From positions 666,623 to 730,622 of the forward strand of contig NZ_JACOFU010000002.1 in NCBI RefSeq assembly GCF_014284275.1: a stretch of DNA of 64,000 nt, in the 5' to 3' direction. The notes under the pieces are model-generated. The model made no database searches. It saw only the letters and a list, made by a program, of their open reading frames with translations, and was not told the origin of the DNA. This document shows, in pieces, positions 1-54,390 of the stretch. The position numbers were made by a program, and so were the translations under genes. Origin of the DNA: Affinundibacterium amnicola (GTDB lineage Bacteria > Pseudomonadota > Gammaproteobacteria > Burkholderiales > Burkholderiaceae_D). Position 1 is the stretch's first letter, and every line of letters begins with the position of its first letter.

Positions 1-1
1 C

Positions 2-832: not shown

Positions 833-852
833 CGGGGAACAGGTATCAATTA

Positions 853-893: not shown

Positions 894-945
894 TTCTTAT
901 GAGAATCATCATTTGAATTATAAGTGCCACATTAAAACCTGCCAC

Positions 946-2158: not shown

Positions 2159-2180
2159 TTAAATTCAGGATAATCCTAAT

Positions 2181-2981: not shown

Positions 2982-3028
2982 ATTTTAAAGGCCATCACAT
3001 TCACAGCCCAACTCCCGTATTTGACGCA

Positions 3029-4222
3029 ATGATTCAAACCCAATTTCACCCACCATCTTCGCCTTCAACAAGTTTGGCGTTATTCTGTAAAGTCATCGAT
3101 AATTTTGGCGACATTGGGATCTGCTGGAGATTGGCTCGTCAACTCTCTAACGAACATCAAATTACCGTCACGCTGTGGGTCGATGACTTAATCAGCTTTA
3201 AGAAAATATGTCCTGAACTCGACGTTGAAACTGAACGACAAATCGTACAAAACATCCACGTACGTCATTGGCGCAATCAAGATGCTTATTTCGAAATTAC
3301 TGAGATTGCCGATATCGTCATTGAGTTTTTTGGCTGCGACATCCCACCGAACTACATCGCGACAATGTCGAAGTGTCAGCCCAAACCTGTTTGGCTAAAT
3401 CTCGAAGGTTTAAGCGCGGAAGAATGGGTGGAAGGGTGTCACACCCTTCCCTCTTCTCATCCTCAATATCCATTAACAAAGTATTTTTTCTTTCCCGGCT
3501 TTACGTATCAAACTGGTGGCCTATTGTTGGAGAACAACTTAATCAAAGAGCGCGAGCAGTTTGTACATGCTGCAACACAGGTGAACGACTTTCTTAAACA
3601 ATTAGGTTTAACACCTGAAGAAATGAATTCATTCAAAGTATCTATGTTTTGCTATCCACATGCACCGCTCTCAACACTATTCGACACATGGAAGCAATCA
3701 AACGAAGCGATCACTTGCTTAGTTCCCGCTGGCGTTGCCAACGAAGCCGTTTCCGTATTCTTGGAAAGTGATGCGATACCCGGTGCAAACAGAAAACGCG
3801 GCAATTTAACTTTGCGAGTAATCCCTTTTGTGCCCCAGAATGCGTACGATAAACTACTGTGGAGCTGTGACCTGAACTTCGTTCGTGGTGAAGACTCGTT
3901 TGTCCGTGCGCAATGGGCAGGCAAAGCATTTATTTGGCACATTTACCCTCAAGATGAAAATTTACATCATAAAAAACTCCAAGCTTTTTTAAATGCCCAC
4001 ACGGCAGAGTCAACATCAAGCAGACGTTTTGCACTTGCATGGAATGCTGCACTGACCGAATCTGACTGGTCTGATTTATGGTTAACCTATCGAAAAGATC
4101 TCACTGAAATTCAATCCCTTAGCCTGATGTGGCAACAAAAAATACAGAGTATTGGAGATATGACATCGAATTTATTGAGCTTCATCAACTCAAAAATCGA
4201 AAAGCGACCGAAAATAGGTTAA
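3029..4222 (+). CDS. earP: Elongation factor P arginine rhamnosyltransferase EarP
   Basis: Transfers rhamnose from dTDP-L-rhamnose to an arginine of EF-P, which EF-P needs to rescue ribosomes stalled at polyproline. The N-terminal block FCKVIDNFGDIGICWRLARQ holds the family aspartates (D24 and D28 here; Asp13/Asp17 in the characterised enzymes, quoted from memory), and RGEDSFVRAQWAGKAFIWHI is the C-terminal donor-binding signature. At 397 aa it is slightly longer than typical, because about ten residues precede the conserved core. The gene lies 123 bp upstream of efp in the same direction, the usual arrangement for EarP bacteria. Confidence 0.95.
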   Translation: MIQTQFHPPSSPSTSLALFCKVIDNFGDIGICWRLARQLSNEHQITVTLWVDDLISFKKICPELDVETERQIVQNIHVRHWRNQDAYFEITEIADIVIEFFGCDIPPNYIATMSKCQPKPVWLNLEGLSAEEWVEGCHTLPSSHPQYPLTKYFFFPGFTYQTGGLLLENNLIKEREQFVHAATQVNDFLKQLGLTPEEMNSFKVSMFCYPHAPLSTLFDTWKQSNEAITCLVPAGVANEAVSVFLESDAIPGANRKRGNLTLRVIPFVPQNAYDKLLWSCDLNFVRGEDSFVRAQWAGKAFIWHIYPQDENLHHKKLQAFLNAHTAESTSSRRFALAWNAALTESDWSDLWLTYRKDLTEIQSLSLMWQQKIQSIGDMTSNLLSFINSKIEKRPKIG

Positions 4223-4345
4223 AATGTGCGGTTAATTTTTAATGTATTTTCGATTCAATCTAAGCTGGGCTTGCAGGGCAATATTTCAAATATTCCAGTA
4301 GGCAACAGATAATTTTTAAGCAACCTACTTTTTATATAAATTACT

Positions 4346-4921
4346 ATGAAACCTGCAAAAGAAATTCGCGTTGGCAACATTATTATGGTCGACAGCAAGC
4401 CTATGATCGTGCTGCGTTCTGACGTCAACGGCTCTAGCCGTACTGGCTTCACTTACAAGTGGAAAATGAAAAACTTGTTGACGAATAGCCCATTGGAAAA
4501 CGTATTCCGTGGCGACGACAAATTTGACGTTGTTGTATTGGATAAAAAGCCAGTAACTTACTCTTACTTCGCTGATCCTTTGTATGTATTCATGGACACA
4601 GAATACAACCAATATGAAATCGAAGAAGAAAACTTGGGCGATGCATTGCATTACCTGAAAGACGGCATGGAATGTGAAGCTGTTTTCTACGACGGCAAAG
4701 CAATCTCTGTAGAATTGCCTACCACAATCGCTCGCTTGGTGATCTACTCTGAACCAGCAGTGAAGGGCAACACTTCCGGTAACGTTTTGAAAGAAGCGAA
4801 AATCGAGAACGCAATCGAAGCGCATTGCCATACAGTGCAAGTGCCATTATTCGTTAGCCAAGATGACGTTATCGAAATCGATACACGCACCAATGAATAC
4901 AAGCGCGTAGTTCGCAACTAA
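4346..4921 (+). CDS. efp: Elongation factor P (EarP-modified type)
   Basis: Translation factor that promotes peptide bond formation at consecutive prolines. The 191-aa protein has the KOW-like N-terminal domain ([19 protein letters not shown]) and two OB domains, ending in [14 protein letters not shown]. The modified loop reads NGSSRTGF with arginine at residue 32, the residue rhamnosylated by EarP; lysine-type EF-Ps carry K34 instead. Having earP just upstream agrees with this. A strong intrinsic terminator follows the stop codon. Confidence 0.97.
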
Positions 4922-6874: not shown

Positions 6875-6909
6875 GTAAAAACAAAAAAGGGATGCCACTG
6901 GCACCCCTT
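6875..6909 (-). terminator. Terminator of the rpsP-rimM-trmD-rplS operon
   Basis: Read on the minus strand: stem AAGGGGTGCC / GGCATCCCTT with one mismatch and a 3-nt loop (6887-6909), followed by TTTTTTGTTTTT. It sits 33 bp after the rplS stop. Confidence 0.85.
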
Positions 6910-6941
6910 CTTTAAGACTCACAAAACAAGCATGGCTATGA

Positions 6942-7316
6942 TTAAACAGCTGCTGCTTTGCGGTTTGGTAATTTCTCTTTAATACGAGCAGATTTACCTG
7001 AACGTTCACGCAAGTAGTACAACTTAGCGCGACGTACATCACCACGACGTTTCACTTCGATAGAAGCGATCAATGGTGAGTACAATTGGAATGTACGTTC
7101 AACGCCTTCGCCGGAAGAAATTTTACGAACGATGAAGTTCGAATTCAAACCACGGTTACGACGGGAAATAACAACGCCTTCGTACGCCTGAGCACGCTTA
7201 CGTGTGCCTTCAACGACATTAACGTTAACTACGACTGTATCACCAGGCGCGAACGCAGGGATATTTTTAGCTAAGCGAGCAATTTCTTCTTGCTCTAATG
7301 TTTGGATCAAATCCAT
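6942..7316 (-). CDS. rplS: 50S ribosomal protein L19
   Basis: L19 of the large ribosomal subunit, located at the 30S-50S interface. The 124-aa protein starts [15 protein letters not shown] and contains [25 protein letters not shown] and [14 protein letters not shown] chose the ATG at 7316 because it matches the family N-terminus and has GGAGTG 8 nt upstream; an in-frame ATG at 7337 would add seven residues. It is the last gene of the operon and is separated from trmD by 181 bp, a longer gap than those between the other members. Confidence 0.97.
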
Positions 7317-7497
7317 TTTTATCACTCCAGATACCATCTTGCTGACGCCTAAGTTTGTTTACACAAGCTTGCTCAGTAGAGGATGGGGTTAAACATGTGA
7401 ACACATTACTTCTTCAGTTCACTCTAAACACATGCAAAAAATTTTGCATGATTTATTCGTACAAAAAGTTACGAATTCTTTATAAAGGCCAGTTCAA

Positions 7498-8253
7498 TCA
7501 AATTGGATTGAGCGATTTCAAAAACTGCTCATCGGCCTTACTTAACAAGCCAGCCTTACGCGCTTGCTCAATTAATTCTGGGCGCTTCTGCCAACTCACC
7601 AGTAAGGATTGTTGACGTCGCCACTTTGCGATCTCTGCGTGATTACCACCCATTAAAATCGTCGGTACGCATTGATCTTCAAAAATTTCTGGTCTGGTGT
7701 AATGCGGACAATCCAGCAAACCATTGACAAAACTATCTTCGACTGCCGACGCTTCATCGTGCAATACGCCAGGCAACTGACGTATCACTGCATCCATCAA
7801 AGCCATTGCTGGTAATTCACCGCCAGACAAAACGAAATCGCCGAGGCTGATTTCTTCATCGACTTCACGATCTAATAATCGTTGATCGACAGCTTCATAA
7901 CGACCACACAACAAAACTAAACCATCTTGCGCCGCCCACTCCATCACACGAGTGTGATTCATAGGCTTGCCTTGTGGCGATAAATAAAGCACTTTAGGCT
8001 TTGCAAATCCAAGTTCTTGTTGCCGCGCTTTTGCTGCATGCAGTGCCATCTGCAAAGGCTTGGCCATCATCACCATGCCAGGACCACCACCGTACGACCG
8101 GTCGTCTACAGTTCTATGCTTGTCTGTCGTAAAATCACGTGGATTCCAAAACTGCAATGCACATTTTCTTTGCTCAAACGCCCGTCGCGTCACACCGGAT
8201 TCGGTAATCGCAGCAAACATTTCCGGGAACAGCGTAATGACATCAAATTGCAT
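7498..8253 (-). CDS. trmD: tRNA (guanine-37-N1)-methyltransferase
   Basis: SPOUT-family enzyme making m1G37 next to the anticodon, which prevents +1 frameshifting. The 251-aa length is usual. Conserved blocks are [62 protein letters not shown] and [13 protein letters not shown]; the last three belong to the trefoil-knot SAM pocket and the catalytic loop. GGAGCG lies 7 nt before the ATG. Confidence 0.97.
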
Positions 8254-9908: not shown

Positions 9909-11699
9909 TTAAAACTGCTCTTCAGTCAAAGCCAACACACCCGCACTACCATCCACAATAGAAGTGCGCAAACCTTGCGCTGTACTTAATACGTGATCAG
10001 CGAAAAAGCGTGCTGTCGCGACTTTCGCTTGATTGAAACTGGCATCACCTTCACCGGCTTGCAATTTTGCCTGCGCGATCAAAGCCGCACGCGCCATTTG
10101 CCAGCCGCCCAATACGACACCTGCCAATTTCAAGTAAGGCACGCTGCCCGAGAACACTGCTTTGATATCGGATTTGAAGTTCGCCACCACGAATTCAACC
10201 ACGTCTTCCATTGCTTTCGCGCCAATTGCTAATTGTGCTGCAATGGCTTTCAAATTTGCATCACCAGTCGCGTTCAATTCGACTTCAACCGCACGCACTT
10301 GTGCGATGAATTGTTTCGCCACTGCGCCGCCATCACGTGAAGTCTTACGACCGACCAAATCATTTGCTTGAATCGCCGTTGTACCTTCATAGATCGTCAA
10401 AATCTGCGCATCGCGATAATGCTGGGCAGCGCCAGTTTCTTCAATAAAGCCCATACCACCATGCACTTGCACGCCAGTTGAAGTCACATCTAAAGACAAC
10501 TCAGTTGACCAACCTTTAACGATAGGCACCAAGAATTCATACGCCGCCTGATTTTGCTTACGCACTTCAGCATCTGCGTGATGATGCGCTTTATCGCTCA
10601 TCGCAGCGGCCACATACGCCAAGGCACGTGAGCCTTCGATCTGTGCACGCATAGACATCAACATACGACGCACGTCAGGATGATGAATGATGCTCACCGG
10701 GCCGGCTGAACCTGCCAGATCACGTGACTGCACGCGATCTTTTGCGTATTGCACGGCTTTTTGATAAGCGCGTTCCGCCACTGCCACACCTTGTATACCA
10801 ACGCCAAAACGCGCTGCGTTCATCATGATGAACATGTATTCCAAGCCGCGATTTTCTTCCCCAACCAAAGTACCGATTGCACCGCCGTTATCGCCAAATT
10901 GCAAGACACAAGTTGGGCTCGCTTTGATACCTAGCTTATGCTCAATCGATACGCAATGTGCATCGTTACGCGCGCCTAGGCTGCCATCTGCATTGACCAG
11001 GAATTTTGGTACGATAAACAGGGAAATCCCCTTCACGCCTTCTGGTGCATTTGGCGTACGCGCCAATACTAAGTGCACGATATTTTCCGCCATATCGTGC
11101 TCACCATAGGTGATGAAAATCTTAGTACCAAATACTTTGTAAGTGCCATCATCTTGTGGCACAGCACGTGTACGTACCATTGCCAAATCAGAGCCCGCTT
11201 GTGGCTCAGTCAGATTCATGGTGCCGGTCCATTTGCCGGAGATCAGGTTTTCGAGATAAGTTGCTTTATCAGCGTCACTACCAGCGGTCAACAAGGCTTC
11301 AATCGCACCATCGCTCAACAATGGGCACAATGCAAAAGATAAATTCGCTGAATGCAGCATTTCGATACAAGGAGTTGCCACCAATTTTGGCAAGCCTTGA
11401 CCACCAAATTCTGTTGGATGCTGCACGCCTTGCCAGCCTGCTTCGGCGAACATTTTAAAGGCTTCTTTAAAGCCTTTTGTGGTGAAGACCTGGCCATCTT
11501 TCCAATAGCTTGGTTCTTGATCGCCCGCCCAGTTCAAAGGCGCAATCACTTCACTCGTAAAACGTGCATTTTCTTCGAGTACCGCTTCGACGGTTTCAGG
11601 CGTAGCATCTTCGCAGCCAGGCAATCCATTTACTTCAGTCAGGCCAGCCAATTCGTTCATCACGAACAGCATGTCTTTCATTGGCGCTACATAACTCAT
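9909..11699 (-). CDS. Acyl-CoA dehydrogenase, long form with C-terminal domain
   Basis: 596-aa flavoprotein that oxidises an acyl-CoA to the enoyl-CoA and passes electrons to ETF. Domains in order: helical N-terminal domain, beta domain (TGTMNLTEPQAGSDL; KVFGTKIFITYGEHDM), C-terminal helical domain ending in QILTIYEGTTAIQANDLVGRK with the catalytic-base position in YEGTT, then an extra domain of about 130 aa. This matches the AcdA/DmdC-like class rather than short-chain enzymes. I start at the ATG at 11699 (MSYVAPMKDM), which has GGGAG upstream, instead of 11711. It lies downstream of etfB and etfA, its likely electron acceptor. Chain-length specificity cannot be read from sequence. Confidence 0.9.
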   Translation of the reverse strand: MSYVAPMKDMLFVMNELAGLTEVNGLPGCEDATPETVEAVLEENARFTSEVIAPLNWAGDQEPSYWKDGQVFTTKGFKEAFKMFAEAGWQGVQHPTEFGGQGLPKLVATPCIEMLHSANLSFALCPLLSDGAIEALLTAGSDADKATYLENLISGKWTGTMNLTEPQAGSDLAMVRTRAVPQDDGTYKVFGTKIFITYGEHDMAENIVHLVLARTPNAPEGVKGISLFIVPKFLVNADGSLGARNDAHCVSIEHKLGIKASPTCVLQFGDNGGAIGTLVGEENRGLEYMFIMMNAARFGVGIQGVAVAERAYQKAVQYAKDRVQSRDLAGSAGPVSIIHHPDVRRMLMSMRAQIEGSRALAYVAAAMSDKAHHHADAEVRKQNQAAYEFLVPIVKGWSTELSLDVTSTGVQVHGGMGFIEETGAAQHYRDAQILTIYEGTTAIQANDLVGRKTSRDGGAVAKQFIAQVRAVEVELNATGDANLKAIAAQLAIGAKAMEDVVEFVVANFKSDIKAVFSGSVPYLKLAGVVLGGWQMARAALIAQAKLQAGEGDASFNQAKVATARFFADHVLSTAQGLRTSIVDGSAGVLALTEEQF

Positions 11700-43879: not shown

Positions 43880-46483
43880 ATGCCCACTTCAAAAAACTTC
43901 CGTGGACTCAGTGAACAAGAGGCTCATACCCGATTATTAGCTGATGGGCTCAACGAATTACCAAGCGCGCAGCCACAAAACTTATGGCAAATCGCCTGGC
44001 ATGTTCTATCAGAACCAATGATTTTATTACTGCTTGGCTGTGCGACTATTTATCTAAGTTTGGGTGATTGGCATGATGCTGTCGTGTTGTCTGGTTTTGT
44101 GATGGGCATGGTTCTAATCAGCTTCTATCAAGAACATAAAACCGAACGTGCACTCGAAGCACTACGCGACTTATCTCATCCACATGCCGAGGTCATACGT
44201 GATGGAAGCAGAATCAGCATCCCCAGCAATCAAGTTGTCACTGGCGACTACCTTGTGCTAACGGAGGGAGACAGAGTTGCCGCTGATGGTATCTTGGTTT
44301 CTTGTTTAAATCTGACGGTTGATGAATCTTTGCTCACGGGTGAATCACTTGCTGTCAATAAGTCCAGTGCATTCAATTCTGACGCTCAATTGATGGAAGA
44401 AAAATTCGTCGACAATATTTCTATGGGAGCTGCAGGCGGTGACGATACCGTCTTTGTCTTTTCGGGAAGCCTAGTGGTGCAAGGACAAGGTATCGCCATC
44501 ATCAAACGAACTGGCGCCCATACAGCAATCGGCAAAATCGGCAGCGCTCTTGCAGAAATCCAAGAAGAACCAACGCGCGTACAGAAAGAAACGAAACGCG
44601 TAGTGAAGTATGTGGCTTCGGCGAGTTTGGGCTTAGCGATCTTGCTGGCAATCTGGTATGGCTGGAGTCGTGACGATTGGACTCGTGGCATTCTGGTGGG
44701 ACTGACTTTTGCAATGGCGATGATTCCTGAAGAATTGCCAGTCGTGTTAACTATATTCTTAGGTATCGGCGCCTGGCGCATAGGGCAGAAACGCGTACTG
44801 ACACGTCGTATTCCTGCCATCGAAACCTTAGGCTCAGCAAATGTCTTATGCGTCGATAAAACCGGCACCTTAACGCAAAACAAAATGGCGCTTGCGCAAA
44901 TTGTTAGTGGCAGCCTAAATTTCAGTGCCGCCTCAGATGCATGCTTGCCAGATGAATTACATGAAGTGTTAGAAATCGCGATCTTGGCCAGCCAAAGGCA
45001 AGGTAGCGAGCCGATGGATCAGGCACTTCAAGCGGCAGGACAAACATGGCTGATCGATACCGAGCATCTACATCAGGATTGGCAACTCGTCGAAGAATAT
45101 CCTCTCTCAAAACAATTACTCGCAGTATCACGCGTCTGGCAAAGTAAAGACCCACAACAACCACACACTGTGGTCGCAAGTAAAGGCGCACCGGAAGCCA
45201 TTGCCGATCTCTGTCATCTTGATTCTGCTAAAACCGCTACGTTAATGGCACAAGTCAATGCGATGGCGGAACAAGGTTTGCGTGTTTTAGCGGTCGCCAA
45301 AGCCAAATTCGATCATCAGCTTGCTGTCGAAAATCTACCGAAGCAACAACATGATTTCAATTTTCAACTTGCAGGCTTAGTTGCCTTCGCCGACCCGATC
45401 CGGGACGGTGTGCCCGAAGCCATTCAAGAATGTCGTAGTGCTGGCATACGTGTGATGATGATTACAGGCGACTACCCAGCAACCGCATTGAATATCGCGA
45501 ATCAATGTGGCATCGACAGCAGTGCTGGCACTTTAAGCGGTAGTGCAATGCAAGCACTATCAGATGAACAGTTACAAGAACAATTGGAACATATACATAT
45601 TTACTGTCGTGTCATGCCGGAACAGAAATTACGCATCGTAAAACTACTGAAAAAAAATGGTGCCATCGTTGGAATGACCGGAGATGGAGTCAATGACGCA
45701 CCAGCGTTGAAAGCTGCGCATATCGGGATCGCGATGGGCAAAAGAGGCACCGAAGTTGCACGCGAATCGGCCGACTTGGTTCTGCTCGATGATGCATTCT
45801 CTGCGATCGTTGCCGCAGTACGTTTGGGACGACGTATTTTTGATAATTTACGCAAAACTTTAAGTTTTATTATTGCGGCACATGTCCCTATCGTCGCGCT
45901 CTCCTTCCTGCCGGTGATGTTTGGATGGCCGGTCTTGCTCATGCCAGTTCATATCCTCATCCTAGAGTTAATTATCGATCCCAGCTGTTCACTTGTATTT
46001 GAAGCCGAAGAAGAGGAAGAAAATATCATGCAACGGGCACCGCGCTCTGTGCAGTCGAGCATTTTCCAAGCTGAGGTGATGTGGCGAGGATTCTGGCAAG
46101 GTAGTAGTGTTTTTCTGATGATACTGGCAATCTATTGGTTCACTATCCAACATGGCATCGCAACCGACGAAGCGCGAGCAATCACATTTACCGCAATCGT
46201 AATTGGCAATCTAGGATTCATTTTTCTAAATCGCTCAATGAGCGGCAATTTGCAACATGCTATTCGTTCACCGAATCCCATACTCTGGTGGGTCTGTGCT
46301 GCCACTGGATTCACCCTACTACTCATCCTGAGCGTACCTAAACTTAGACATCTATTCTATTTTGGCAACCCAGAGCCTGCTCACCTGTTATACAGTGCAG
46401 CAAGCGCCGCTATCGCAGTTTGCATCATCGCTGTGATCCAAGGTTTACTGTTAAAAGATAAAATCCTAAGCTCTCAAGGATGA
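43880..46483 (+). CDS. P2-type cation-transporting ATPase
   Basis: 867-aa P-type ATPase. An N-terminal cation-ATPase domain (GLSEQEAHTRLLADGLNELP) is followed by the actuator loop VDESLLTGESLAVNK, M4 motif PEELPVVLT, phosphorylation site DKTGTLTQNK (Asp about 326), hinge MTGDGVNDAPALKAAHIGIAMG and six C-terminal helices. The PEELP helix resembles calcium/manganese pumps (PEGLP in SERCA). M6 reads LELIIDPSCSLVFEAE, with Glu where P2A calcium pumps have Asn, so the cation is uncertain. A run of six acidic residues (EAEEEEEN) follows M6. It has no metal-binding N-terminal domain and no accessory gene. Confidence 0.9.
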   Translation: MPTSKNFRGLSEQEAHTRLLADGLNELPSAQPQNLWQIAWHVLSEPMILLLLGCATIYLSLGDWHDAVVLSGFVMGMVLISFYQEHKTERALEALRDLSHPHAEVIRDGSRISIPSNQVVTGDYLVLTEGDRVAADGILVSCLNLTVDESLLTGESLAVNKSSAFNSDAQLMEEKFVDNISMGAAGGDDTVFVFSGSLVVQGQGIAIIKRTGAHTAIGKIGSALAEIQEEPTRVQKETKRVVKYVASASLGLAILLAIWYGWSRDDWTRGILVGLTFAMAMIPEELPVVLTIFLGIGAWRIGQKRVLTRRIPAIETLGSANVLCVDKTGTLTQNKMALAQIVSGSLNFSAASDACLPDELHEVLEIAILASQRQGSEPMDQALQAAGQTWLIDTEHLHQDWQLVEEYPLSKQLLAVSRVWQSKDPQQPHTVVASKGAPEAIADLCHLDSAKTATLMAQVNAMAEQGLRVLAVAKAKFDHQLAVENLPKQQHDFNFQLAGLVAFADPIRDGVPEAIQECRSAGIRVMMITGDYPATALNIANQCGIDSSAGTLSGSAMQALSDEQLQEQLEHIHIYCRVMPEQKLRIVKLLKKNGAIVGMTGDGVNDAPALKAAHIGIAMGKRGTEVARESADLVLLDDAFSAIVAAVRLGRRIFDNLRKTLSFIIAAHVPIVALSFLPVMFGWPVLLMPVHILILELIIDPSCSLVFEAEEEEENIMQRAPRSVQSSIFQAEVMWRGFWQGSSVFLMILAIYWFTIQHGIATDEARAITFTAIVIGNLGFIFLNRSMSGNLQHAIRSPNPILWWVCAATGFTLLLILSVPKLRHLFYFGNPEPAHLLYSAASAAIAVCIIAVIQGLLLKDKILSSQG

Positions 46484-46670: not shown

Positions 46671-46749
46671 CTGAACGCTCAGGTGGTATTTCTGGGTAAA
46701 TTGAAGCGAGATGAAGTGCGTTTTTCTCTACGTGGAGCGACACTGTGTC

Positions 46750-47631
46750 ATGAATAAACCCGAAGCCCTAGCATTACTGGTGCAACAAGCGCGTCAAGGT
46801 GAATTAATTTTCTCTGCGAGTGTCGCCACCTCCCTCAAAGTGCAAGAAGCGATCGATGTCGCAGATTGCAGCCTTGATACAGCCACCAAAATTGTTTTAA
46901 ACGAACCTTTGCTCGCCGCGAAAGTTGTCGCCGTCGCCAACAGTGCGGCGTATTCACGCGGTTCTGAAGTAACCAACGTTCGTTCGGCGATTGCCCGACT
47001 GGGCTTTAACACACTCCGTGGATTAGTCGCTTCGGTCGTGATGCGACAAATTGCTGGCGCCAGTAGAAATCCGATTATTCGTGCAAAAATCAATCAATTA
47101 TGGGAACACTCAGCGCAAGTAGCTGCGTTGTCGCAAGTCATCGCAAGACGAGTGACAAAATTGAATCCTGATACGGCAATGTTCGCCGGCATTGTGCACG
47201 AAGTTGGTGGATTTTATTTGCTCTCACGCGCAGAAGAATTTCCTTGTTTGCTTGAGCCTGATGATTTATCTGGCGCAAATGACGACGAAAACTTTGATGA
47301 ATTCAGCGAAACCGCTGCGAAAGAAGAATCACAAGACGCTATCATTGGTCGCGCAGTATTGAAAAATCTGAATTTACCAACCGAGGTCAACGAAGCTGTC
47401 GAGGCGATGTGGTATGGATTGCACGCAATGCCTCCGGAAACCTTGGGCGATACCTTACTCCTAGCCAATGATCTCGCAAAAACAGTCTCCCCTTTAGACA
47501 CGAGAACTGATTCCGAAACCAATCGTTGCGAATCTGAAATTGACTTTGTGGTGGGGGAAGGAAGTCTCTTGAGTATTTTGGAAGAGTCCGAAGACGAAGT
47601 GATCACCTTATCTGCGGCATTGATCATTTGA
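46750..47631 (+). CDS. HDOD-domain signalling protein
   Basis: 293-aa protein with one HDOD domain (residues about 15-215), the non-catalytic relative of HD-type phosphodiesterases: GELIFSASVATSLKVQEAID, NEPLLAAKVVAVANSAAYSRG, VTNVRSAIARLGFNTLRGLV and MFAGIVHEVGGFYLLS. HDOD proteins act in regulatory relays (motility, biofilm, cell cycle). The C-terminal 80 residues are acidic and hold no domain I recognise. The start at 46750 fits the domain; a longer reading from 46711 is possible. It lies 337 bp before the SxtJ cluster. Confidence 0.85.
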   Translation: MNKPEALALLVQQARQGELIFSASVATSLKVQEAIDVADCSLDTATKIVLNEPLLAAKVVAVANSAAYSRGSEVTNVRSAIARLGFNTLRGLVASVVMRQIAGASRNPIIRAKINQLWEHSAQVAALSQVIARRVTKLNPDTAMFAGIVHEVGGFYLLSRAEEFPCLLEPDDLSGANDDENFDEFSETAAKEESQDAIIGRAVLKNLNLPTEVNEAVEAMWYGLHAMPPETLGDTLLLANDLAKTVSPLDTRTDSETNRCESEIDFVVGEGSLLSILEESEDEVITLSAALII

Positions 47632-47968
47632 AGCATTCAAAAAGTAAAGTACACGCATTTTGCATGACTTATTAATTCATTTTGGTGACTCGCACTGATG
47701 ATTCACCAATTCGACAATTGCATCGCAGATCATCTAGGAATGACAATTCATACATCAAACTTAGCTGAGTAGTATTGAACAAAAAATCTCCTGCACGTTG
47801 CGAACAGTAACTGTTTAGTGACGCACTTTCTGTTCGCAATTCTTCCTCAAATGTGACATTGAGCATTAGCCATCTCTAGGCTTAATATGCGATACTACGG
47901 GCTATTTTTGATTGCCTGACAATAAACACAAGATTTGTCACCTTAAACCTCACCAGAGTTTGACCAAG
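47632..47968. other. Intergenic region before the SxtJ cluster
   Basis: 337 bases without a supported gene. A 64-codon open frame on the minus strand (47672-47866) has no convincing ribosome site and no family features. The promoter of the downstream cluster should lie here, but no good -35/-10 pair stands out. Confidence 0.4.
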
Positions 47969-48385
47969 ATGCATTCGCAATCTCCGCCATCCAAAGAAAT
48001 TGCCAGGTCATCGGATCGAAATTTCGGTCTCATCATGTCCGCGTTTTTCTTCATCATCGCATTGTTTCCACTTCTGCATAGTCAGACGATCCGCTACTGG
48101 GCACTACTCTTGGCGGCATTATTTTTTATTCCTGCGTTGTTACGTCCAAGGCTCCTATCTCAATTAAACATCTTATGGATGCAGTTTGGCGAAATACTTT
48201 CAAAAATTATCAGCCCTATTGCCTTAGGTTTGGTATTTTTCTTAGCGATCACCCCCTTCGCGCTCGTCATGCGCCTGATTGGAAAACGAACATTAGACTT
48301 GAAATTCGATCCATCTTGTGAAAGTTATTGGAAGAACAGACAAGTTCCAGGGCCAGATCCTAAATCCATGAAAGATCAGTTTTAA
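47969..48385 (+). CDS. SxtJ-family membrane protein
   Basis: 138-aa membrane protein. Hydrophobic segments are FGLIMSAFFFIIALFPLL, YWALLLAALFFIPALL and ISPIALGLVFFLAITPFALVMRLIGK, followed by a short soluble tail ending SYWKNRQVPGPDPKSMKDQF. That layout, and the RLIGK...W..R tail, match the SxtJ family named after the saxitoxin cluster, where the role is unknown. It starts at the ATG at 47969; upstream codons back to a TTG at 47912 look non-coding. It heads a run with DUF5989, a carbamoyltransferase and an SGNH hydrolase. Confidence 0.82.
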   Translation: MHSQSPPSKEIARSSDRNFGLIMSAFFFIIALFPLLHSQTIRYWALLLAALFFIPALLRPRLLSQLNILWMQFGEILSKIISPIALGLVFFLAITPFALVMRLIGKRTLDLKFDPSCESYWKNRQVPGPDPKSMKDQF

Positions 48386-48494
48386 TAAAAATTTGTTTAA
48401 AGAACGTTCTTTTAGATTCAATAGTTTAAACAGAGAATTCGCCCAATCTTTTTTTATACATTCGCAAACGATTTTCAAATCAAGGATCACGATT

Positions 48495-48644
48495 TTGTTA
48501 TTTATTAAAGAACTATTTAATTATTTGCGTGCTCGCAAAAAATTCTGGCTGCTACCCATTTTCATGGTCATGGCCTTACTCGGTGCGCTCATCGTATTAG
48601 CGCAAGGTAGCGCCATCGCCCCTTTCATTTACACTCTTTTTTAA
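48495..48644 (+). CDS. DUF5989 small membrane protein
   Basis: 49-aa protein reading LFIKELFNYLRARKKFW, then one membrane helix (LLPIFMVMALLGALIVLA), then QGSAIAPFIYTLF. This closely fits DUF5989, a family of about 50 residues that accompanies SxtJ and carbamoyltransferases. No ATG lies near the family start. A TTG at 48495 has AAGGA 8 nt upstream and gives the normal length, so I prefer it to the ATG at 48393, which adds 34 residues of poor quality. The stop is 6 bp before the carbamoyltransferase start. Confidence 0.82.
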   Translation: MLFIKELFNYLRARKKFWLLPIFMVMALLGALIVLAQGSAIAPFIYTLF

Positions 48645-48650
48645 GCACCT

Positions 48651-50486
48651 ATGTTTGTTGTCGGTATTTCCGCTTATTACCACGACAGTGCTGTGGCACT
48701 GATACGTGATGGTGTCATCATCGCAGCGGCACAAGAAGAACGCTTCACACGTAAAAAACACGATGCCGCATTCCCGGCACAAGCTTTGCAATTTTGCTTG
48801 GCACAAGCAGGCATACAAGCGGACGAAGTGGACTATGTCGCATTTTATGACAAACCTTTCCTCAAATTTGAGCGTCTGCTGGAAACCTATCTGGCATTCG
48901 CCCCCAAAGGCTTTTCCTCGTTCCGGCTAGCACTGCCAGTTTGGTTACGCGAAAAACTGTTTCTAAAAAACTTGCTGGCAAAAGAGCTCAAGAATTTTTC
49001 TCCCACGATCAATTGGGAAGATAAATTATTATTCGGCGAACACCATGTCAGCCATGCCGCCAGCGCGTTTTACCCCTCGCCTTTCGAAGAGGCGGCAGTA
49101 TTAACCTTAGATGGCGTTGGTGAGTGGGCGACTAGTTCCTTAGCCATAGGCCGCGGTAAAAAACTGGAAGTCATTAAGGAAATACATTTTCCACATTCCT
49201 TGGGCTTACTGTATTCGGCCTTCACTTATCATTTGGGTTTCAAAGTCAATTCGGGCGAATATAAAGTCATGGGTCTGGCCCCCTACGGGAGACCGATCTA
49301 TGTCGACACCATTTTTAAGCACTTAATCGATGTCAAGTCAGATGGTTCCTTCCGTCTGGATATGAAGTATTTTGATTACTGTGCTGGCTTGACCATGACC
49401 AATCGTCATTTTGGCGAACTGTTTCAATTATCGGTGCGCAAAGCTGAACAAGAATTAACTCAAGCCCACATGGATATGGCAGCTTCTTTACAAGCCGCCA
49501 CCGAGCAAGTGATCAGTCTATTAGTTGCAGAAGTCGCCAAAGAAACTGGCTTGAAAAACTTATGTTTGGCAGGTGGTGTTGCGCTCAACTGTGTCGCCAA
49601 TGGCAAGATTTTTAAAGACAAACATTTTGAGAATATTTGGGTACAACCAGCAGCAGGTGATGCCGGTGGTGCGCTAGGCGCAGCGCTTGCTGCCTATCAT
49701 GGCTATCTTGATCAAGAACGCGAACCTTGCATTGGTTTTGATCATATGCGGGGCAGTTATCTTGGTCCAGAGTTTGCTCAAGCCGATATCGAAAGTCGCC
49801 TGCGAGCAGCAGGCGCCGAGTTTGAGGTTTTAGATGAGGCAACGCTGATCGCCAATTGTGTCGATGATCTGCAAATGGGCAACGCGATAGGCTGGTTTCA
49901 AGGTCGTATGGAATTTGGTCCCAGAGCTTTGGGTGCTCGTTCCATACTTGGTGATGCGCGCTCACCACATATGCAAAGCACACTCAATCTCAAGGTCAAA
50001 TTTCGCGAATCTTTCCGCCCATTTGCTCCGTCGATTTTGCGCGAAGACGTCACTACATGGTTTGATTTCGACGCGGATAGTCCCTACATGCTGATGGTAG
50101 CAGAAGTCAAAGAAAGCCAAAGGATAGCAACACCCGAGGCAGAGAAAGATCTGTTCGGTATCGATAAACTCAAGGTAGCACGTTCCACTATTCCTGCCGT
50201 CACGCATGTGGATTATTCAGCTCGGCTGCAAACAGTAACGGCCGACACCAATCCGCGCTACCACGCTTTGCTATCAAGCTTTAAACAACTGACTGGCTGC
50301 CCTATTTTAGTCAATACCAGTTTTAACGTGCGTGGTGAACCCATTGTGAATACACCAGAAGAAGCTTTCAAATGTTTTATGGGCACCGATATTGAGCGCT
50401 TAGCGATTGGCAATTGTTATCTCAAAAAAGAAAAACAAAACCCTGCTTTGAAAATCAGTTACGAAAACGCGTTCGAACTAGATTAA
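48651..50486 (+). CDS. NodU/TobZ-family O-carbamoyltransferase
   Basis: 611-aa two-part enzyme. The N-terminal Kae1-like domain (GISAYYHDSAVALIRDGVIIAAAQEERFTRKKHDAAFP; EHHVSHAASAFYPSPFEEAAVLTLDGVGEW; YKVMGLAPYG) makes carbamoyl-adenylate from carbamoyl phosphate and ATP. The C-terminal domain (GWFQGRMEFGPRALGARSILGDAR; RESFRPFAPSIL; NTSFNVRGEPIVNTPEEAF) transfers the carbamoyl group to a hydroxyl. Known acceptors are nodulation factors, antibiotics and sugars; here the acceptor is unknown. No nod or antibiotic synthase genes are nearby. The next gene starts 2 bp after the stop. Confidence 0.92.
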   Translation: MFVVGISAYYHDSAVALIRDGVIIAAAQEERFTRKKHDAAFPAQALQFCLAQAGIQADEVDYVAFYDKPFLKFERLLETYLAFAPKGFSSFRLALPVWLREKLFLKNLLAKELKNFSPTINWEDKLLFGEHHVSHAASAFYPSPFEEAAVLTLDGVGEWATSSLAIGRGKKLEVIKEIHFPHSLGLLYSAFTYHLGFKVNSGEYKVMGLAPYGRPIYVDTIFKHLIDVKSDGSFRLDMKYFDYCAGLTMTNRHFGELFQLSVRKAEQELTQAHMDMAASLQAATEQVISLLVAEVAKETGLKNLCLAGGVALNCVANGKIFKDKHFENIWVQPAAGDAGGALGAALAAYHGYLDQEREPCIGFDHMRGSYLGPEFAQADIESRLRAAGAEFEVLDEATLIANCVDDLQMGNAIGWFQGRMEFGPRALGARSILGDARSPHMQSTLNLKVKFRESFRPFAPSILREDVTTWFDFDADSPYMLMVAEVKESQRIATPEAEKDLFGIDKLKVARSTIPAVTHVDYSARLQTVTADTNPRYHALLSSFKQLTGCPILVNTSFNVRGEPIVNTPEEAFKCFMGTDIERLAIGNCYLKKEKQNPALKISYENAFELD

Positions 50487-50488
50487 AC

Positions 50489-51697
50489 ATGATGAAGCTT
50501 CTAAAAAATTTATTACTATCGATAATCTCCATCGCCATTGTCTTAGGCATTGCGGAAACGGCACTGCATTTTGCAGATTTCCCCGCCACTCCAAAACACG
50601 GTTGGAAATGGGACGAAAGCCCTTATCGTGGCCCCATGAATCAACATGATCAACACACGAATCAACTCGGCCTACGCGGACAAAATATCGCTTACACCGA
50701 TGAAGACTTCGTCGTTGTATTGGTCGGCGATTCACAAACCGAAGCGGGAACGCAGGTGTTCGAAAACATGCCCGAAGGGCTTTTAGAAAAAGCCATCAAA
50801 GTACAGTCAGGTCGCGACAAAGTGAAAGTTTTTTCGATCGCCTCTGCTGGTTGGGGACAAGATCAGCAACTACTCTGGCTGACAAAGTACTTCGAAAAAT
50901 ATCGTGCCAATGCGGTTCTGGTATGGACCACACCGGTCAATGACTACTGGGAAAATACGTTTATCGACCGCAGCATCACACTCGAAGCAGGCAAGCTAAA
51001 ACCAACCTATACCTTGGATGGTGAGAAGCTCAAAGCGGTGATACCTGCAAGTTTCGAATGGAAGTTACTGACGCTCTTGGGTGTCGCCTTGAGTAGTCAA
51101 GACAAAGACGAAAAAAGCTCAATTGAACAAATTCATTTAAATCATTGGCTAGCAAAATTACCTTCCACCGATCGAGTGGCGACTGCGCCAGAAACTTGTC
51201 CAAAAAATGAAGTCATCGAACAGGAAGTCATAGAAGCCTATCGCAAAGGAGAACGCGCCTACACTATCGTGACGGAAGAAGACGTGGAAGGTGGCCGCAA
51301 CCATTTCTCACCTTATTTGACACATCTGTCGCCGCGTGAAGAATACTCAATAGCCATTACTCATCGCTTGTTTCAAGAGATTGCCAAAGTCAGCCAGCAA
51401 CACGGTGCCAGTTTTAATATCGTGCATACCTACAGAAACGACCTAGACGCAGCGTTCCGTGAAATAAGATGCATCAAGAATTTGAAGACCAATACCTACT
51501 TTACCTATGATGGTTCGGATTGGTTGCGCCATTTGAAAAAGTCACCATTAGCCGATCAACTCATCCCCCTCAAAATCGAGAGCGAGCAAGCATTGAATGT
51601 ACGCGAGGGAGACTGGCATTTTGGCAAAGAAGGAAATCAATTAGCGATGCAGGAATTGGCAAAAGTGATTACACAAAAATACTTGAGCAAACCTTGA
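50489..51697 (+). CDS. Membrane-anchored SGNH/GDSL-type hydrolase
   Basis: 402-aa protein with an N-terminal anchor (LLLSIISIAIVLGIAETAL) and a periplasmic SGNH domain: VVVLVGDSQTEAG carries the nucleophile Ser (block I), and GDWHFGKEGNQLAMQ carries the Asp-His dyad (block V). Such proteins add or remove acyl groups on polysaccharides. It begins 2 bp after the carbamoyltransferase stop (ATG at 50489 or 50492), so both are surely one transcript, and modification of one extracytoplasmic product is the likely common task. Length and sequence outside the two motifs are not familiar to me. Confidence 0.85.
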   Translation: MMKLLKNLLLSIISIAIVLGIAETALHFADFPATPKHGWKWDESPYRGPMNQHDQHTNQLGLRGQNIAYTDEDFVVVLVGDSQTEAGTQVFENMPEGLLEKAIKVQSGRDKVKVFSIASAGWGQDQQLLWLTKYFEKYRANAVLVWTTPVNDYWENTFIDRSITLEAGKLKPTYTLDGEKLKAVIPASFEWKLLTLLGVALSSQDKDEKSSIEQIHLNHWLAKLPSTDRVATAPETCPKNEVIEQEVIEAYRKGERAYTIVTEEDVEGGRNHFSPYLTHLSPREEYSIAITHRLFQEIAKVSQQHGASFNIVHTYRNDLDAAFREIRCIKNLKTNTYFTYDGSDWLRHLKKSPLADQLIPLKIESEQALNVREGDWHFGKEGNQLAMQELAKVITQKYLSKP

Positions 51698-51722
51698 TTA
51701 CACTTCTACTCTAAAAATAATG

Positions 51723-51757
51723 AGCCCAGCAGAAATTGATTGCTGGGCTTATTTTTT
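51723..51757 (+). terminator. Terminator of the SxtJ/carbamoyltransferase cluster
   Basis: Perfect 9-bp stem AGCCCAGCA / TGCTGGGCT, 9-nt loop, then TATTTTTTATT. It marks the end of the four-gene unit. Confidence 0.88.
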
Positions 51758-51770
51758 ATTCAAACCGTTC

Positions 51771-53660
51771 TTACTGTCCTAAGGCGTTTTTAATTTGTTG
51801 CAGGGATTGTGGATCTTCGATTGTCGTCAAGTCACCCGCATCACGGCCTTCACATACCGCCTGTATCGAACGGCGCAGTAATTTTCCTGAACGGGTTTTC
51901 GGTAACATCGCCACAAAATAAACACGCGCTGGACGCGCCACGGCGCCTAATTGCTTATCAACCACGGCCATCACTTCGGCCTCCAAAGCTTTTGCTAACT
52001 CAGGTGTCGCTGCACGTTCTGGATTTTTAATAATGGCAAATGCTACCGCGACCTGGCCTTTCAATTTATCTTCAATACCCACCACCGCGACCTCTGAAAT
52101 TTGCGGATGACTGGAGATACTTTCTTCGATTTCACGTGTGCCAAGGCGATGTCCTGCCACATTAATCACGTCATCGGTACGTCCTAAAATAAAGAAATAA
52201 CCATCTTCATCACGTATGCCCCAATCGAAAGTTGAATACAGTTGATCGTGCGCGAAGTTAGACCAGTAGGTTTGTACAAAACGTGCGTCGTCACCGTAAA
52301 TGGTTTGCATGCAGCCCGGTGGCAATGGCCCTTTAATCGCCACCACACCTTTTTCATTTGCATCGCAAACCGCACCTGTGGCTTCGTTAATAATGGTCAC
52401 GTTGTAGCCGTACATCGCGATGCCTGGACTACCGAGACGCGTATCGTTGTGTTCAACGCCGCGCGCAACGGAAAGAATAGGCCAGCCAGTTTCGGTCTGC
52501 CAGTAGTTATCAATAATCGGCACACCCAGCTCAGTCGCGATCCAATTTGAAGTCGTTTCATCGAGTGGCTCGCCGGCCAAATAAAGTGCTTTGAGCGAAG
52601 AAATATCATATTTCTTCATCAACTCGACCGGGTGTTTTTTCAGCACACGAACTGCCGTCGGCGCTGAGAACATGCGCGTGACTTTGTATTTCTCGACGAT
52701 ACTCCACCACACACCAGCATCAGGGCGTATCGGTGTGCCTTCGTACATAATCGTCGCCATACCTGCAATCAGCGGGCCATAAACAATGTAAGAATGGCCG
52801 ACAACCCAACCGATATCGGAAGTCGCGAAATAGGTTTCGCCCGGATTGCCGCAGAAAATATTTTTCATCGAGGAAGCCAGCGCCACCGCATAACCACCGA
52901 CATCGCGCTGTACACCTTTCGGCTTACCAGTCGTGCCAGAAGTGTAGAGCACATAAGACATCTCATTCGATTCCAGCCAGGTCACGGGCACTTGCGCGTC
53001 CATGTGTTGCTCACGTAATGCTGCGTAATCTTCATCGCGACCTGCAACAATATTCATCGCGTCGAGACCACGATTCACCAACAGGACTTTTGCAGGTTTA
53101 TGCTCGGCCAACTGAATTGCTTCATCCAGCAAAGGTTTGTAAGGCACCGCCTTACCGCCACGCATCCCGGCGTCGGCAGACACCACCAATACGGGTTTAG
53201 CATCATCAATACGTGTTGCTAAACTCTTGGAGGCGAAGCCACCGAACACCACGGAATGCACAGCACCGATGCGCGCACAAGCCAACATGGCAAATGCGGC
53301 TTCGGCAATCATGGGCATATAGATGAGAACTCTATCGCCCTGCTTGACTCCGAGATCTAACATCATCGCTGCCATGCATTGCACTTCAACATGTAGTTCA
53401 GCAAAGCTGTAAGTTTTCTCGGAATTGGTTTCAGTCGAAATGGCGATCAATGCTGCCTTATCTGACTGTGTCTCCAACCAACGATCAATCGCGTTATAAC
53501 AAAGATTGGTTTCGCCACCGACAAACCATTTGGCGAATGGTGGTTTGCTGTGATCGAGTACTTGAGTATAGGGTTTGTGCCAGCTGATGAGTTGGGCTTG
53601 TGTGTCCCAAAAGCTGGTGGGGTCTTGAATTGAGGCTTGATAAAAATCTTGGTAGTTCAT
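51771..53660 (-). CDS. prpE: Propionyl-CoA synthetase
   Basis: 629-aa adenylate-forming enzyme activating propionate to propionyl-CoA, the entry to the methylcitrate cycle. Motifs: YTSGTTGKPKGVQRDVGG (P-loop), YWQTETGWPI, the hinge GRTDDVINVAGHRLGTREIEE and the C-terminal lysine in LPKTRSGKLLRRS. The prp setting and the PrpE-like N-terminus (NYQDFYQASIQDPTSFWDTQAQLISWHKPYTQVLD) favour PrpE over acetyl-CoA synthetase. GGAGAC precedes the ATG. It is separated from prpF by a 730-bp repeat-rich gap and may have its own promoter. Confidence 0.95.
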   Translation of the reverse strand: MNYQDFYQASIQDPTSFWDTQAQLISWHKPYTQVLDHSKPPFAKWFVGGETNLCYNAIDRWLETQSDKAALIAISTETNSEKTYSFAELHVEVQCMAAMMLDLGVKQGDRVLIYMPMIAEAAFAMLACARIGAVHSVVFGGFASKSLATRIDDAKPVLVVSADAGMRGGKAVPYKPLLDEAIQLAEHKPAKVLLVNRGLDAMNIVAGRDEDYAALREQHMDAQVPVTWLESNEMSYVLYTSGTTGKPKGVQRDVGGYAVALASSMKNIFCGNPGETYFATSDIGWVVGHSYIVYGPLIAGMATIMYEGTPIRPDAGVWWSIVEKYKVTRMFSAPTAVRVLKKHPVELMKKYDISSLKALYLAGEPLDETTSNWIATELGVPIIDNYWQTETGWPILSVARGVEHNDTRLGSPGIAMYGYNVTIINEATGAVCDANEKGVVAIKGPLPPGCMQTIYGDDARFVQTYWSNFAHDQLYSTFDWGIRDEDGYFFILGRTDDVINVAGHRLGTREIEESISSHPQISEVAVVGIEDKLKGQVAVAFAIIKNPERAATPELAKALEAEVMAVVDKQLGAVARPARVYFVAMLPKTRSGKLLRRSIQAVCEGRDAGDLTTIEDPQSLQQIKNALGQ

Positions 53661-53824
53661 TTTGTCTCCAGTTTTTATAGCGTTTTTACGTTGAATTATT
53701 TTTGGCGTTTTGTTGATTGTTGTTCGTTTTAGTTAATCGCCTTTTGTACTACATCAAAATTTGTGATTCTCACTTCATCTTTTCGTTGGAATGATTTAAT
53801 TCCGCGGTTAATCAGCTTCCTCTG

Positions 53825-54030
53825 GTCGGGGGTAGCCCGACAGCTACTTACTTTTCTTTGCTTCGCCAAAGAAAAAGTAAGCAAAAGAAAGGCGACCGTA
53901 GACTCGCCCCTGCGGGGTGCTTGCGCTACGCTTCAGCATAATTTGTGCATCACAAAAAATGGGAAAGTGTTGAAACTCGCTTCGCTCAAACAACAACACT
54001 TTCTTATCCATTTTCTGTGACGCACAAATT
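53825..54030 (+). repeat. Three-hairpin repeat module, copy A
   Basis: Three hairpins in a row: GTCGGG/CCCGAC (53825-53841); CTTACTTTTCTTTG pairing with CAAAGAAAAAGTAAG (53847-53881); and a long one with arms AATTTGTGCATCACA / TGTGACGCACAAATT (53940-54030) whose loop holds GAAACTCGCTTCGCTCAAAC. The same module occurs in inverted orientation at 54176-54362. Open reading frames across it look accidental. Confidence 0.85.
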
Positions 54031-54175
54031 ACATCGTCTCAAACGGGGGCAAGTCAAAAACAACGACCTACAACTGCTCATAGAAAAATGGATGTCTATC
54101 GGTACTGCTTGTTTTGATGTTGCCGTTGCTTTTGATGTTGTTGTTGATTTTGACCTTCATCCACTTCTGACACTG

Positions 54176-54362
54176 CCAATTGTGCAAGACAGAAAATGGA
54201 TAAAGAAAGCTTCGTTGTTTGAGCGAAGCGAGTTTCGAAGCTTTCCCATTTTTTGTCTTGCACAATTGGGAACCCGAAGGGCAGTGGCAGCGTGGTCGCC
54301 TTTCTTTGCTTCCTTTCTTTGGCGAAGCAAAGAAAGGAAGTGGCTGTCGGGCCACACCCGAC
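54176..54362 (-). repeat. Three-hairpin repeat module, copy B (inverted)
   Basis: Mirror copy of the 53825-54030 module: a hairpin with perfect arms CCAATTGTGCAAGACA / TGTCTTGCACAATTGG (54176-54269), CTTCCTTTCTTTG / CAAAGAAAGGAAG (54309-54340) and GTCGGG/CCCGAC (54346-54362). The loop motif GTTTGAGCGAAGCGAGTTTC is the complement of that in copy A. Paired differences keep the stems intact. Confidence 0.85.
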
Positions 54363-54390
54363 CTACAGGCCTCAATTCAAAACAGCAAAC

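What the first reader, a model, noticed from the sequence alone, without database searches (positions are those of the whole stretch)
47969..51757. SxtJ / DUF5989 / carbamoyltransferase / SGNH hydrolase cluster with no known product
Four genes run in one direction, the last three with gaps of 6 and 2 bp, and end in a strong terminator. Two are small membrane proteins of unknown function (SxtJ and DUF5989), one is a NodU/TobZ-type carbamoyltransferase and one a membrane-anchored SGNH enzyme with both catalytic blocks. SxtJ and DUF5989 are known to travel with carbamoyltransferases, but no product is known and no natural-product or nodulation genes are near. I infer a machine that carbamoylates, and acylates or deacylates, an envelope molecule: the small membrane proteins may present a lipid-linked or surface substrate.
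Basis: partly seen in the sequence, partly recalled or inferred. Interest (0 to 1): 0.75.

Follow-up and report, generated by a model that had tools for sequence, protein, structure and literature searches.

The report
Portable membrane carbamoylation gene cassette
A four-gene cassette that probably attaches a small carbamoyl group to some exported or surface molecule at the bacterial inner membrane; it is made of the same kinds of genes as the carbamoylation part of the saxitoxin gene cluster but stands alone here, so its natural substrate is an open and testable question.

Summary
In detail: SxtJ, DUF5989, a class III O-carbamoyltransferase (CT) and a membrane-anchored SGNH enzyme run together and end in a strong terminator. 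In a close relative the flanking genes are about 117 bp apart, so this is a discrete cassette. In 276 genomes of the class, SxtJ or DUF5989 lies within 3 kb of 36 of 37 high-scoring CTs and of 0 of 59 lower-scoring ones. SGNH genes lie within 600 bp of the module in 34 of 87 loci, in several positions, against 0 of 20 control CTs. Two genomes from different classes carry CT-SxtJ fusions. Best reading: SxtJ and DUF5989 tether the CT to the inner membrane, where it carbamoylates an exported or envelope molecule made elsewhere; the periplasmic SGNH enzyme works on the same product. The module as a unit is well supported; acceptor and SGNH reaction are inferred. Hopanoids are disfavoured. New variant of a known kind.

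The parts
47969..48385 (+). SxtJ-family membrane protein, 138 aa, predicted helices 16-36, 43-58, 60-104 and tail 131-137; tail motif SYW..R ... DQF
   Evidence: PF19588 48.2 bits; helices from model m61abd37b5bb7, pLDDT 72, pTM 0.46; SY(W) of the tail conserved in an alignment of 47 sequences
48495..48644 (+). DUF5989, 49 aa, one hydrophobic helix, TTG start, very conserved RKK..WL.P...LLG..........GSA.APFIYTLF
   Evidence: PF19451 88.5 bits; alignment of 49 sequences
48651..50486 (+). Class III O-carbamoyltransferase, 611 aa, Kae1-like plus YrdC-like domains; general base H11, Fe ligands H131 H135 D154 D337; C-terminal FELD
   Evidence: Pfam; PDB relatives NovN/GdmN/TobZ, best E 3e-96; residues near invariant in 40 and 72 homologues; C-termini listed
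50489..51697 (+). SGNH enzyme, 402 aa, N-terminal membrane helix (2-28), catalytic domain inferred periplasmic, triad S82-D375-H377
   Evidence: Alignment A1; model m04ce5153f8a8 with SGNH folds among Foldseek hits; no Pfam hit of its own
51719..51753 (+). Intrinsic terminator, 14-bp stem, 7-nt loop, T run
47632..51780 (.). Whole cassette interval, absent from relative G002 where the flanks are about 114-117 bp apart
46711..47631 (+). Left flank: HDOD-domain protein, present with or without the cassette
51771..53660 (-). Right flank: acyl-CoA synthetase, propionyl-CoA-synthetase-like (name recalled, no family search), present with or without the cassette

Best explanation
This is a portable, membrane-tethered O-carbamoylation module. 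The cytosolic CT makes carbamoyl-AMP from carbamoyl phosphate and ATP and moves the carbamoyl group to a hydroxyl of its acceptor (shown for relatives, inferred here). SxtJ, helped by DUF5989, docks the CT on the inner face of the inner membrane, probably through the basic SYW tail of SxtJ and the C-terminal end of the CT (supported by fusions and co-conservation; the contact itself is inferred). The acceptor is a molecule made elsewhere in the genome that leaves through or stays in the envelope, most likely a glycan, glycolipid or similar hydroxylated compound (inferred). The SGNH enzyme is anchored in the same membrane with its active site on the periplasmic side and trims or re-esterifies the carbamoylated product after it has crossed (inferred).
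For: Co-occurrence in the same 276 genomes (counted by eye): SxtJ within 3 kb of 38 of 40 DUF5989 places, DUF5989 within 3 kb of 38 of 39 SxtJ places, either within 3 kb of 36 of 37 CTs of at least 260 bits and of 0 of 59 CTs of 84-221 bits (Fisher p about 1e-25, not corrected for kinship). Core composition CT+DUF5989+SxtJ in 77 of 87 loci. CT-SxtJ gene fusions in two genomes of different classes, L087 and L152, CT first, 739 and 738 aa. In a Streptomyces plasmid SxtJ is reduced to one helix plus the tail, 48 aa, next to the CT. SGNH within 600 bp in 34 of 87 loci, 37 genes (18 downstream, 5 upstream, 4 inside, 10 upstream divergent), about ten times the density further out, and 0 of 20 around other CTs (p 0.0003). 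Independent of my profile: Pfam GDSL_2 is the commonest family among immediate neighbours of the module, 12 of 62 and 13 of 66 proteins, and is not among the 25 commonest around control CTs, so at most 1 of 38. 36 of 37 adjacent SGNH proteins have an N-terminal hydrophobic helix and 36 of 37 a GxS plus DxxH-like pair. Catalytic residues of the CT are kept. Stand-alone cassette with an empty site in 9 of 14 genus members examined. Leisingera and Aquisphaera relatives lie next to YjbH/YjbF and exosortase genes.
Against: SGNH is absent within 600 bp in 53 of 87 loci; 5 loci have CT and DUF5989 without a detectable SxtJ, 4 have DUF5989 alone (two of these at a contig start), 1 has DUF5989 and SxtJ without CT at a contig end. 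G106 has both small genes but no PF02543 match. Two plasmid CTs, 53% and 42% identical to the window's (L166, L167), have neither SxtJ nor DUF5989 within about 8 kb. Glycosyltransferases flank control CTs more often (6 and 5 of 38 for two families) than the module (0-4 per 62-66), so the module is not typically in glycan clusters. Exosortase genes are only mildly enriched (21 of 39 against 70 of 237 genomes, p 0.005, not corrected for kinship) and the window genome has none. Saxitoxin, the one product assigned to such a set, is a soluble alkaloid. SxtJ topology is unresolved: three predicted helices with a cytosolic N-terminus would put the basic tail outside. No interaction was modelled.
Confidence: 0.5

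Rival explanations
1. Soluble-metabolite module: the cassette carbamoylates a small secreted metabolite, as sxtI-J-K-L is thought to do, and the SGNH enzyme is a decarbamoylase; the membrane proteins serve export or regulation.
For: Same four gene types in saxitoxin clusters, with SxtL proposed to remove the carbamoyl group; in Lyngbya wollei sxtI is truncated, sxtL is absent and the held text names neither sxtJ nor sxtK. A Streptomyces relative lies among radical SAM, dioxygenase and MFS genes. The module is seldom beside glycosyltransferases.
Against: No biosynthetic cluster is apparent near the window cassette (ORF list read by eye), and the neighbours scanned elsewhere are varied. Many positions of the acceptor-pocket region of the CT are at least 90% conserved across 72 CTs, which speaks for one kind of acceptor or one docking partner rather than many metabolites.
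Confidence: 0.27
2. Polysaccharide-tailoring module: the CT decorates a repeat unit on its lipid carrier and the SGNH protein acts as an O-acyltransferase or esterase of the AlgX/PatB/DltD kind.
For: AlgX-family matches for six of the SGNH proteins scanned, two over cut-off; PatB and DltD among Foldseek hits; polysaccharide neighbours in Leisingera and Aquisphaera; a family that includes NAD-dependent epimerases adjacent in 4 loci.
Against: Foldseek matches are weak (TM-scores below 0.45 in the 50 rows shown; the first row is TroA, not an SGNH protein). No membrane acyl donor protein (MBOAT) among the 30 neighbour proteins scanned one by one or the commonest neighbour families. Glycosyltransferases are rarer beside the module than beside control CTs.
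Confidence: 0.15
3. Hopanoid module: the acceptor is a bacteriohopanepolyol, since carbamoylated hopanoids are known (recalled).
For: A membrane lipid with free hydroxyls would suit a membrane-docked CT.
Against: Hopene cyclase over cut-off in 4 of 39 DUF5989 genomes against 34 of 237 others, and no match in the window genome.
Confidence: 0.01

Closest known systems
sxtI-sxtJ-sxtK-sxtL of cyanobacterial saxitoxin clusters
   Same: Same four gene types: carbamoyltransferase, SxtJ, a roughly 54-aa protein of unknown function, a GDSL-type enzyme of about 426 aa (sizes; annotations; passages seen).
   Different: Gene order differs (window SxtJ-DUF5989-CT-SGNH); no saxitoxin genes near. That SxtK is DUF5989 and that SxtL is related to this SGNH protein was not tested by sequence.
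Class III O-carbamoyltransferases TobZ, NovN, GdmN
   Same: Two-domain fold, Fe ligands and catalytic His; PDB relatives at E 3e-96 to 4e-82.
   Different: Those act on soluble antibiotics and, as far as recalled, without SxtJ/DUF5989. Against 17 other CTs of the class, this clade has its own residues at 65-106 and a C-terminal Asp, mostly in a FELD-like end.
NodU of rhizobia
   Same: Same enzyme family.
   Different: NCBIfam NodU model 158.5 bits against a cut-off of 1000; no nod genes noticed in the ORF list (by eye).
AlgX / PatB / DltD periplasmic SGNH acyltransferases
   Same: Membrane-anchored SGNH fold on the periplasmic side (their topology recalled).
   Different: Only weak fold similarity; no MBOAT partner among the neighbours scanned.

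Membership tests
Class III O-carbamoyltransferase | Kae1-like N-domain plus YrdC-like C-domain | tested here: met
   PF02543 347 bits, PF16861 241 bits
Class III O-carbamoyltransferase | Fe ligands (GdmN H133, H137, D156, D333) and general base H27 | tested here: met
   Window H131, H135, D154, D337, H11; H11 in 72 of 72 of the clade and 7 of 17 other CTs; Fe ligands in 89 of 89. Mapped through the NovN alignment and GdmN residues named in PMC9633730.
Class III O-carbamoyltransferase | ATP- and carbamoyl-phosphate-dependent activity | not testable with these tools
   needs protein
SGNH/GDSL superfamily | Blocks I (GDS), II (G), III (N), V (D..H) | tested here: met
   G80 S82 D152 H377 invariant, G121 and D375 at 90% or more in 16 sequences; N151 of block III is not in that list; spacing at block V is DxH in the window
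SGNH/GDSL superfamily | Match to a Pfam GDSL model over cut-off | tested here: not met
   No GDSL hit for the window protein up to E 1. Of 15 other SGNH-profile proteins checked one by one, all had a GDSL or AlgX match at E 0.002 or better and 9 were over a cut-off
SxtJ family | PF19588 over cut-off | tested here: met
   48.2 against 24.4 bits
DUF5989 family | PF19451 over cut-off | tested here: met
   88.5 against 27 bits
Saxitoxin sxtIJKL module | Same four gene types together | tested here: met
   Composition only, window against published tables
Saxitoxin sxtIJKL module | Sequence relatedness of SGNH to SxtL and DUF5989 to SxtK | not tested
Saxitoxin pathway | Presence of other sxt genes near | tested here: not met
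   Window ORF list read by eye only, no family search of the other ORFs
NodU | NCBIfam nodul_NodU over cut-off | tested here: not met
   158.5 against 1000 bits

The most novel reading that the evidence does not exclude
A 'write inside, erase outside' carbamate cycle: the membrane-docked CT tags a hydroxyl in the cytosol, and the periplasmic SGNH esterase takes the tag off once the molecule has crossed. The carbamoyl group would serve as a temporary protecting or export handle, and the toxin gene SxtL would be a descendant of this general eraser.
Probability: 0.18. Interest if true: 0.85.

Novelty: new variant of a known kind. Interest (0 to 1): 0.6.

Why it matters
It turns two families of unknown function (SxtJ, DUF5989) into marker subunits of one carbamoyltransferase group found in Pseudomonadota and Planctomycetota and, in reduced form, Actinomycetota. 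It suggests that the carbamoylation segment of a famous toxin cluster belongs to a common bacterial module whose native substrate I found described in none of the papers searched. Because Sinorhizobium meliloti 1021 carries all four genes, the function can be tested directly in a harmless, genetically easy laboratory strain.

Tried and rejected
Hopanoid acceptor: rejected by phyletic profile. Exosortase dependence: rejected as a requirement, the window genome has no exosortase match, though there is mild enrichment. A CT-SGNH 'fusion' in L073 (997-aa frame) was rejected: its middle is out of frame, so it is a frameshifted CT followed by an SGNH gene. Structure: the SGNH model is mediocre (pLDDT 66, pTM 0.64), Foldseek gives 2 matches at E 0.001 or better, the first of them TroA; the SxtJ model was too weak for a fold search. 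The CT tree groups all 72 CTs of the clade under midpoint rooting but with support only 0.53; the clade claim rests on the bit-score gap and signature residues. Of 59 lower-scoring CTs 20 were fetched and 17 entered that tree (three were short). I therefore added the Pfam tally of immediate neighbours, which also made me move some odds from the polysaccharide rival (0.20 to 0.15) to the soluble-metabolite rival (0.25 to 0.27). Papers: DUF5989 0 papers; SxtJ with carbamoyltransferase 7 papers, all on saxitoxin or toxic algae by title (listing); 'SxtJ family', 'DUF5989 family', 'SxtJ domain' 0; carbamoyltransferase with SGNH, gene cluster and exopolysaccharide 0; S. meliloti with carbamoyltransferase and pSymB 2 papers, of which one was opened and spoke only of ornithine and aspartate carbamoyltransferases; the locus tags searched were guesses (0 papers).
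Full report
Observation. The SGNH protein has no GDSL match in Pfam up to E 1 and no sequence match in the PDB up to E 10, but the SGNH blocks are clear and conserved. The closest named relatives of the SGNH gene are in Undibacterium (91%) and other Oxalobacteraceae. The genome has one PF02543 match and one DUF5989 match.

A discrete cassette. In G002, whose HDOD and acyl-CoA-synthetase proteins are 97% and 96% identical to those of the window, the two matches end 117 bp apart; in the window it is 4146 bp. DNA alignment stops at window 47631 and resumes at 51781. Of 14 genus members examined, nine have no cassette between these genes: G002, G004, G014 and G016 (89-117 bp), G013 (126 bp), G001, G011, G012 and G015 (757-849 bp). 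The window and G038 have it there; in G010 the synthetase is on another contig; in G003 and G005 it was not found at the threshold. DUF5989 was found in 10 of 98 relatives examined, among them 6 of the 43 of the window's genus, window included. Whether this is gain or loss was not tested.

A subunit-marked enzyme group. In 276 genomes of the class I searched DUF5989 (40 places over cut-off in 39 genomes), SxtJ (39 places, 38 over cut-off) and PF02543. SxtJ is within 3 kb of 38 of 40 DUF5989 places; the misses are G106:C53, at a contig start, and G127:C356. CTs fall into two sets: 37 places of 260 bits or more, of which 36 have SxtJ or DUF5989 within 3 kb (the miss, G331, is at a contig end), and 59 places of 84-221 bits, of which none has. 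Three fragments of broken copies (G287 twice, G264) were set aside, and hits under 84 bits, many on short C-terminal stretches, were not counted. G106 has both small genes but no PF02543 match. The 72 CTs of 560-720 aa from module loci differ from 17 others mainly at window residues 65-106, including a short insertion at 87-91, and at the C-terminus. By alignment offset, 65-106 covers the helix that lines the acceptor pocket in GdmN (E85-E98; PMC9633730, passages seen). The catalytic His is present in 72 of 72 of the clade but in 7 of 17 others.

Why docking. Two genomes, one from the window's class and one from another, carry a CT whose C-terminus runs straight into SxtJ, 739 and 738 aa from the CT start (L087 and L152). 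The Streptomyces relative has only a 48-aa remnant of SxtJ, one hydrophobic helix and the TYW tail. Most unfused CTs of the clade end in a motif like FELD. I infer that the SxtJ tail and the CT end touch. DUF5989 is the most conserved part: most of the 49 sequences end in APFIYTLF or a close variant; its role is unknown, and a structural one in the membrane is my guess. Five of 87 loci have CT and DUF5989 without a detectable SxtJ, four have DUF5989 alone, one DUF5989 and SxtJ only.

The SGNH partner. Among 87 loci (the window, 9 from relatives, 37 from the class sample, 40 from the phylum sample) an SGNH gene lies within 600 bp of the core in 34: 7 of the first 10, 14 of 37 and 13 of 40 (split counted by eye). 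With at least 1.5 kb on both sides it is 30 of 68. L087 has a further SGNH fragment beside it, seen by an earlier profile and by Pfam AlgX but not counted. Positions vary: after the CT, before SxtJ, before the CT, between SxtJ and DUF5989 in either order, after DUF5989, or divergent. The adjacent genes fall into several groups not joined by BLAST at 1e-6. Some carry TPR repeats. The control, 20 of the 59 other CTs, 7 of them from genomes that also hold the module, gave 0 of 20. Since that profile was trained on module neighbours, I repeated the test with Pfam: among 128 immediate neighbours of at least 200 aa, Lipase_GDSL_2 matched 25 (12 of 62, 13 of 66), more than any other family shown, whereas around control CTs it is not among the 25 families shown of 66, so it matched at most 1 of 38; there glycosyltransferases lead. 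SGNH genes inside the core were not in that tally. Other adjacent families exist: HDOD in the window's relatives and an unnamed family of about 377 aa in four loci.

What it is like. In saxitoxin clusters sxtI, sxtJ, sxtK and sxtL are listed together; sxtI is the carbamoyltransferase, sxtJ and sxtK are of unknown function (405 and 165 bp) and sxtL is a GDSL-lipase-like gene of 1281 bp (PMC2679770, PMC2684587, PMC2885083; passages seen). PMC2679770 states that SxtI acts with SxtJ and SxtK. SxtL is called a decarbamoylase by proposal. In Lyngbya wollei, which makes no carbamoylated toxins, sxtI is truncated, sxtL is missing, and the held text never names sxtJ or sxtK (PMC3037375, passages seen); against this, PMC5132012 counts sxtI, J and K as core genes of all producers (passages seen). 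So the window cassette is composed like that segment; by-sequence membership for SGNH and DUF5989 was not tested.

Substrate and reach. The cassette stands among what look like housekeeping genes (by eye), so its acceptor is probably made elsewhere. Hopene cyclase does not follow it (4 of 39 against 34 of 237) and is absent here. Exosortase is enriched (21 of 39 against 70 of 237) but absent here. A plasmid search found 55 records with a CT like the window's; I looked at nine regions. S. meliloti 1021 and ABS7, Methylosinus, a Rhodobacteraceae strain and Aquisphaera (Planctomycetota) have CT, SxtJ and DUF5989; Streptomyces has the SxtJ remnant; Leisingera (cut at the record start), Paraburkholderia caribensis and Azospirillum oryzae show neither small gene. 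Seven of these nine regions have an SGNH-profile gene within about 1.5 kb of the CT or its partners, Aquisphaera has none, and in Streptomyces the gene is annotated 'Inducer of phenazine A'. In S. meliloti the CT is 65.6% identical to the window's, the SGNH gene is divergent, and SxtJ is below the Pfam cut-off (14.9 against 24.4 bits) but clear with my profile (E 1.5e-34). Strain ABS7 shows a glycoside hydrolase and a DUF995 gene about 7.5 kb upstream. I know of no phenotype for it.

Verdict. Unit of function: well supported (about 0.9). CT docked by SxtJ: likely (about 0.7). Envelope or exported acceptor: somewhat more likely than not. SGNH as eraser or as acyltransferase: open. These figures are my judgement.

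Noticed in passing
window 53824-54363: About 540 bp with nested inverted repeats (arms 63 nt at 87%, 64 nt at 72%, 31 nt at 87%) between the acyl-CoA synthetase and the PrpF-like gene (name recalled); similar DNA aligns in both directions in G002 and G038 at the same place. Possibly a miniature mobile or palindromic element.
   Followed up: partly
window 43880-46483: A P-type ATPase gene (named by eye) lies between the exonuclease-like and HDOD genes here and in G002, but no such gene is between them in cassette-bearing relatives L004, L049 and L050, so this site varies on both sides of the HDOD gene.
   Followed up: no
L165 (Streptomyces plasmid) 10027-10173 and 6908-7825: A 48-aa 'mini-SxtJ' after a CT of this type, and a gene annotated 'Inducer of phenazine A' that matches the SGNH profile (E 1e-13) before it.
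   Followed up: partly
L162 (Leisingera plasmid) 1-4790: CT of this type, SGNH, then a second, divergent carbamoyltransferase, next to YjbH/YjbF genes.
   Followed up: no
L080, L146: DUF5989 genes without CT or SxtJ nearby and not at a contig start (L146 next to a divergent 706-aa SGNH-profile protein); whether these work with a CT elsewhere is unknown.
   Followed up: no
L133: Two DUF5989 genes in tandem beside one CT.
   Followed up: no
L070, L082, L086, L091: A family of roughly 360-410 aa without Pfam match (three scanned) lies next to the module in all four loci where it was seen, all of them with TPR-bearing or similar long SGNH proteins.
   Followed up: partly
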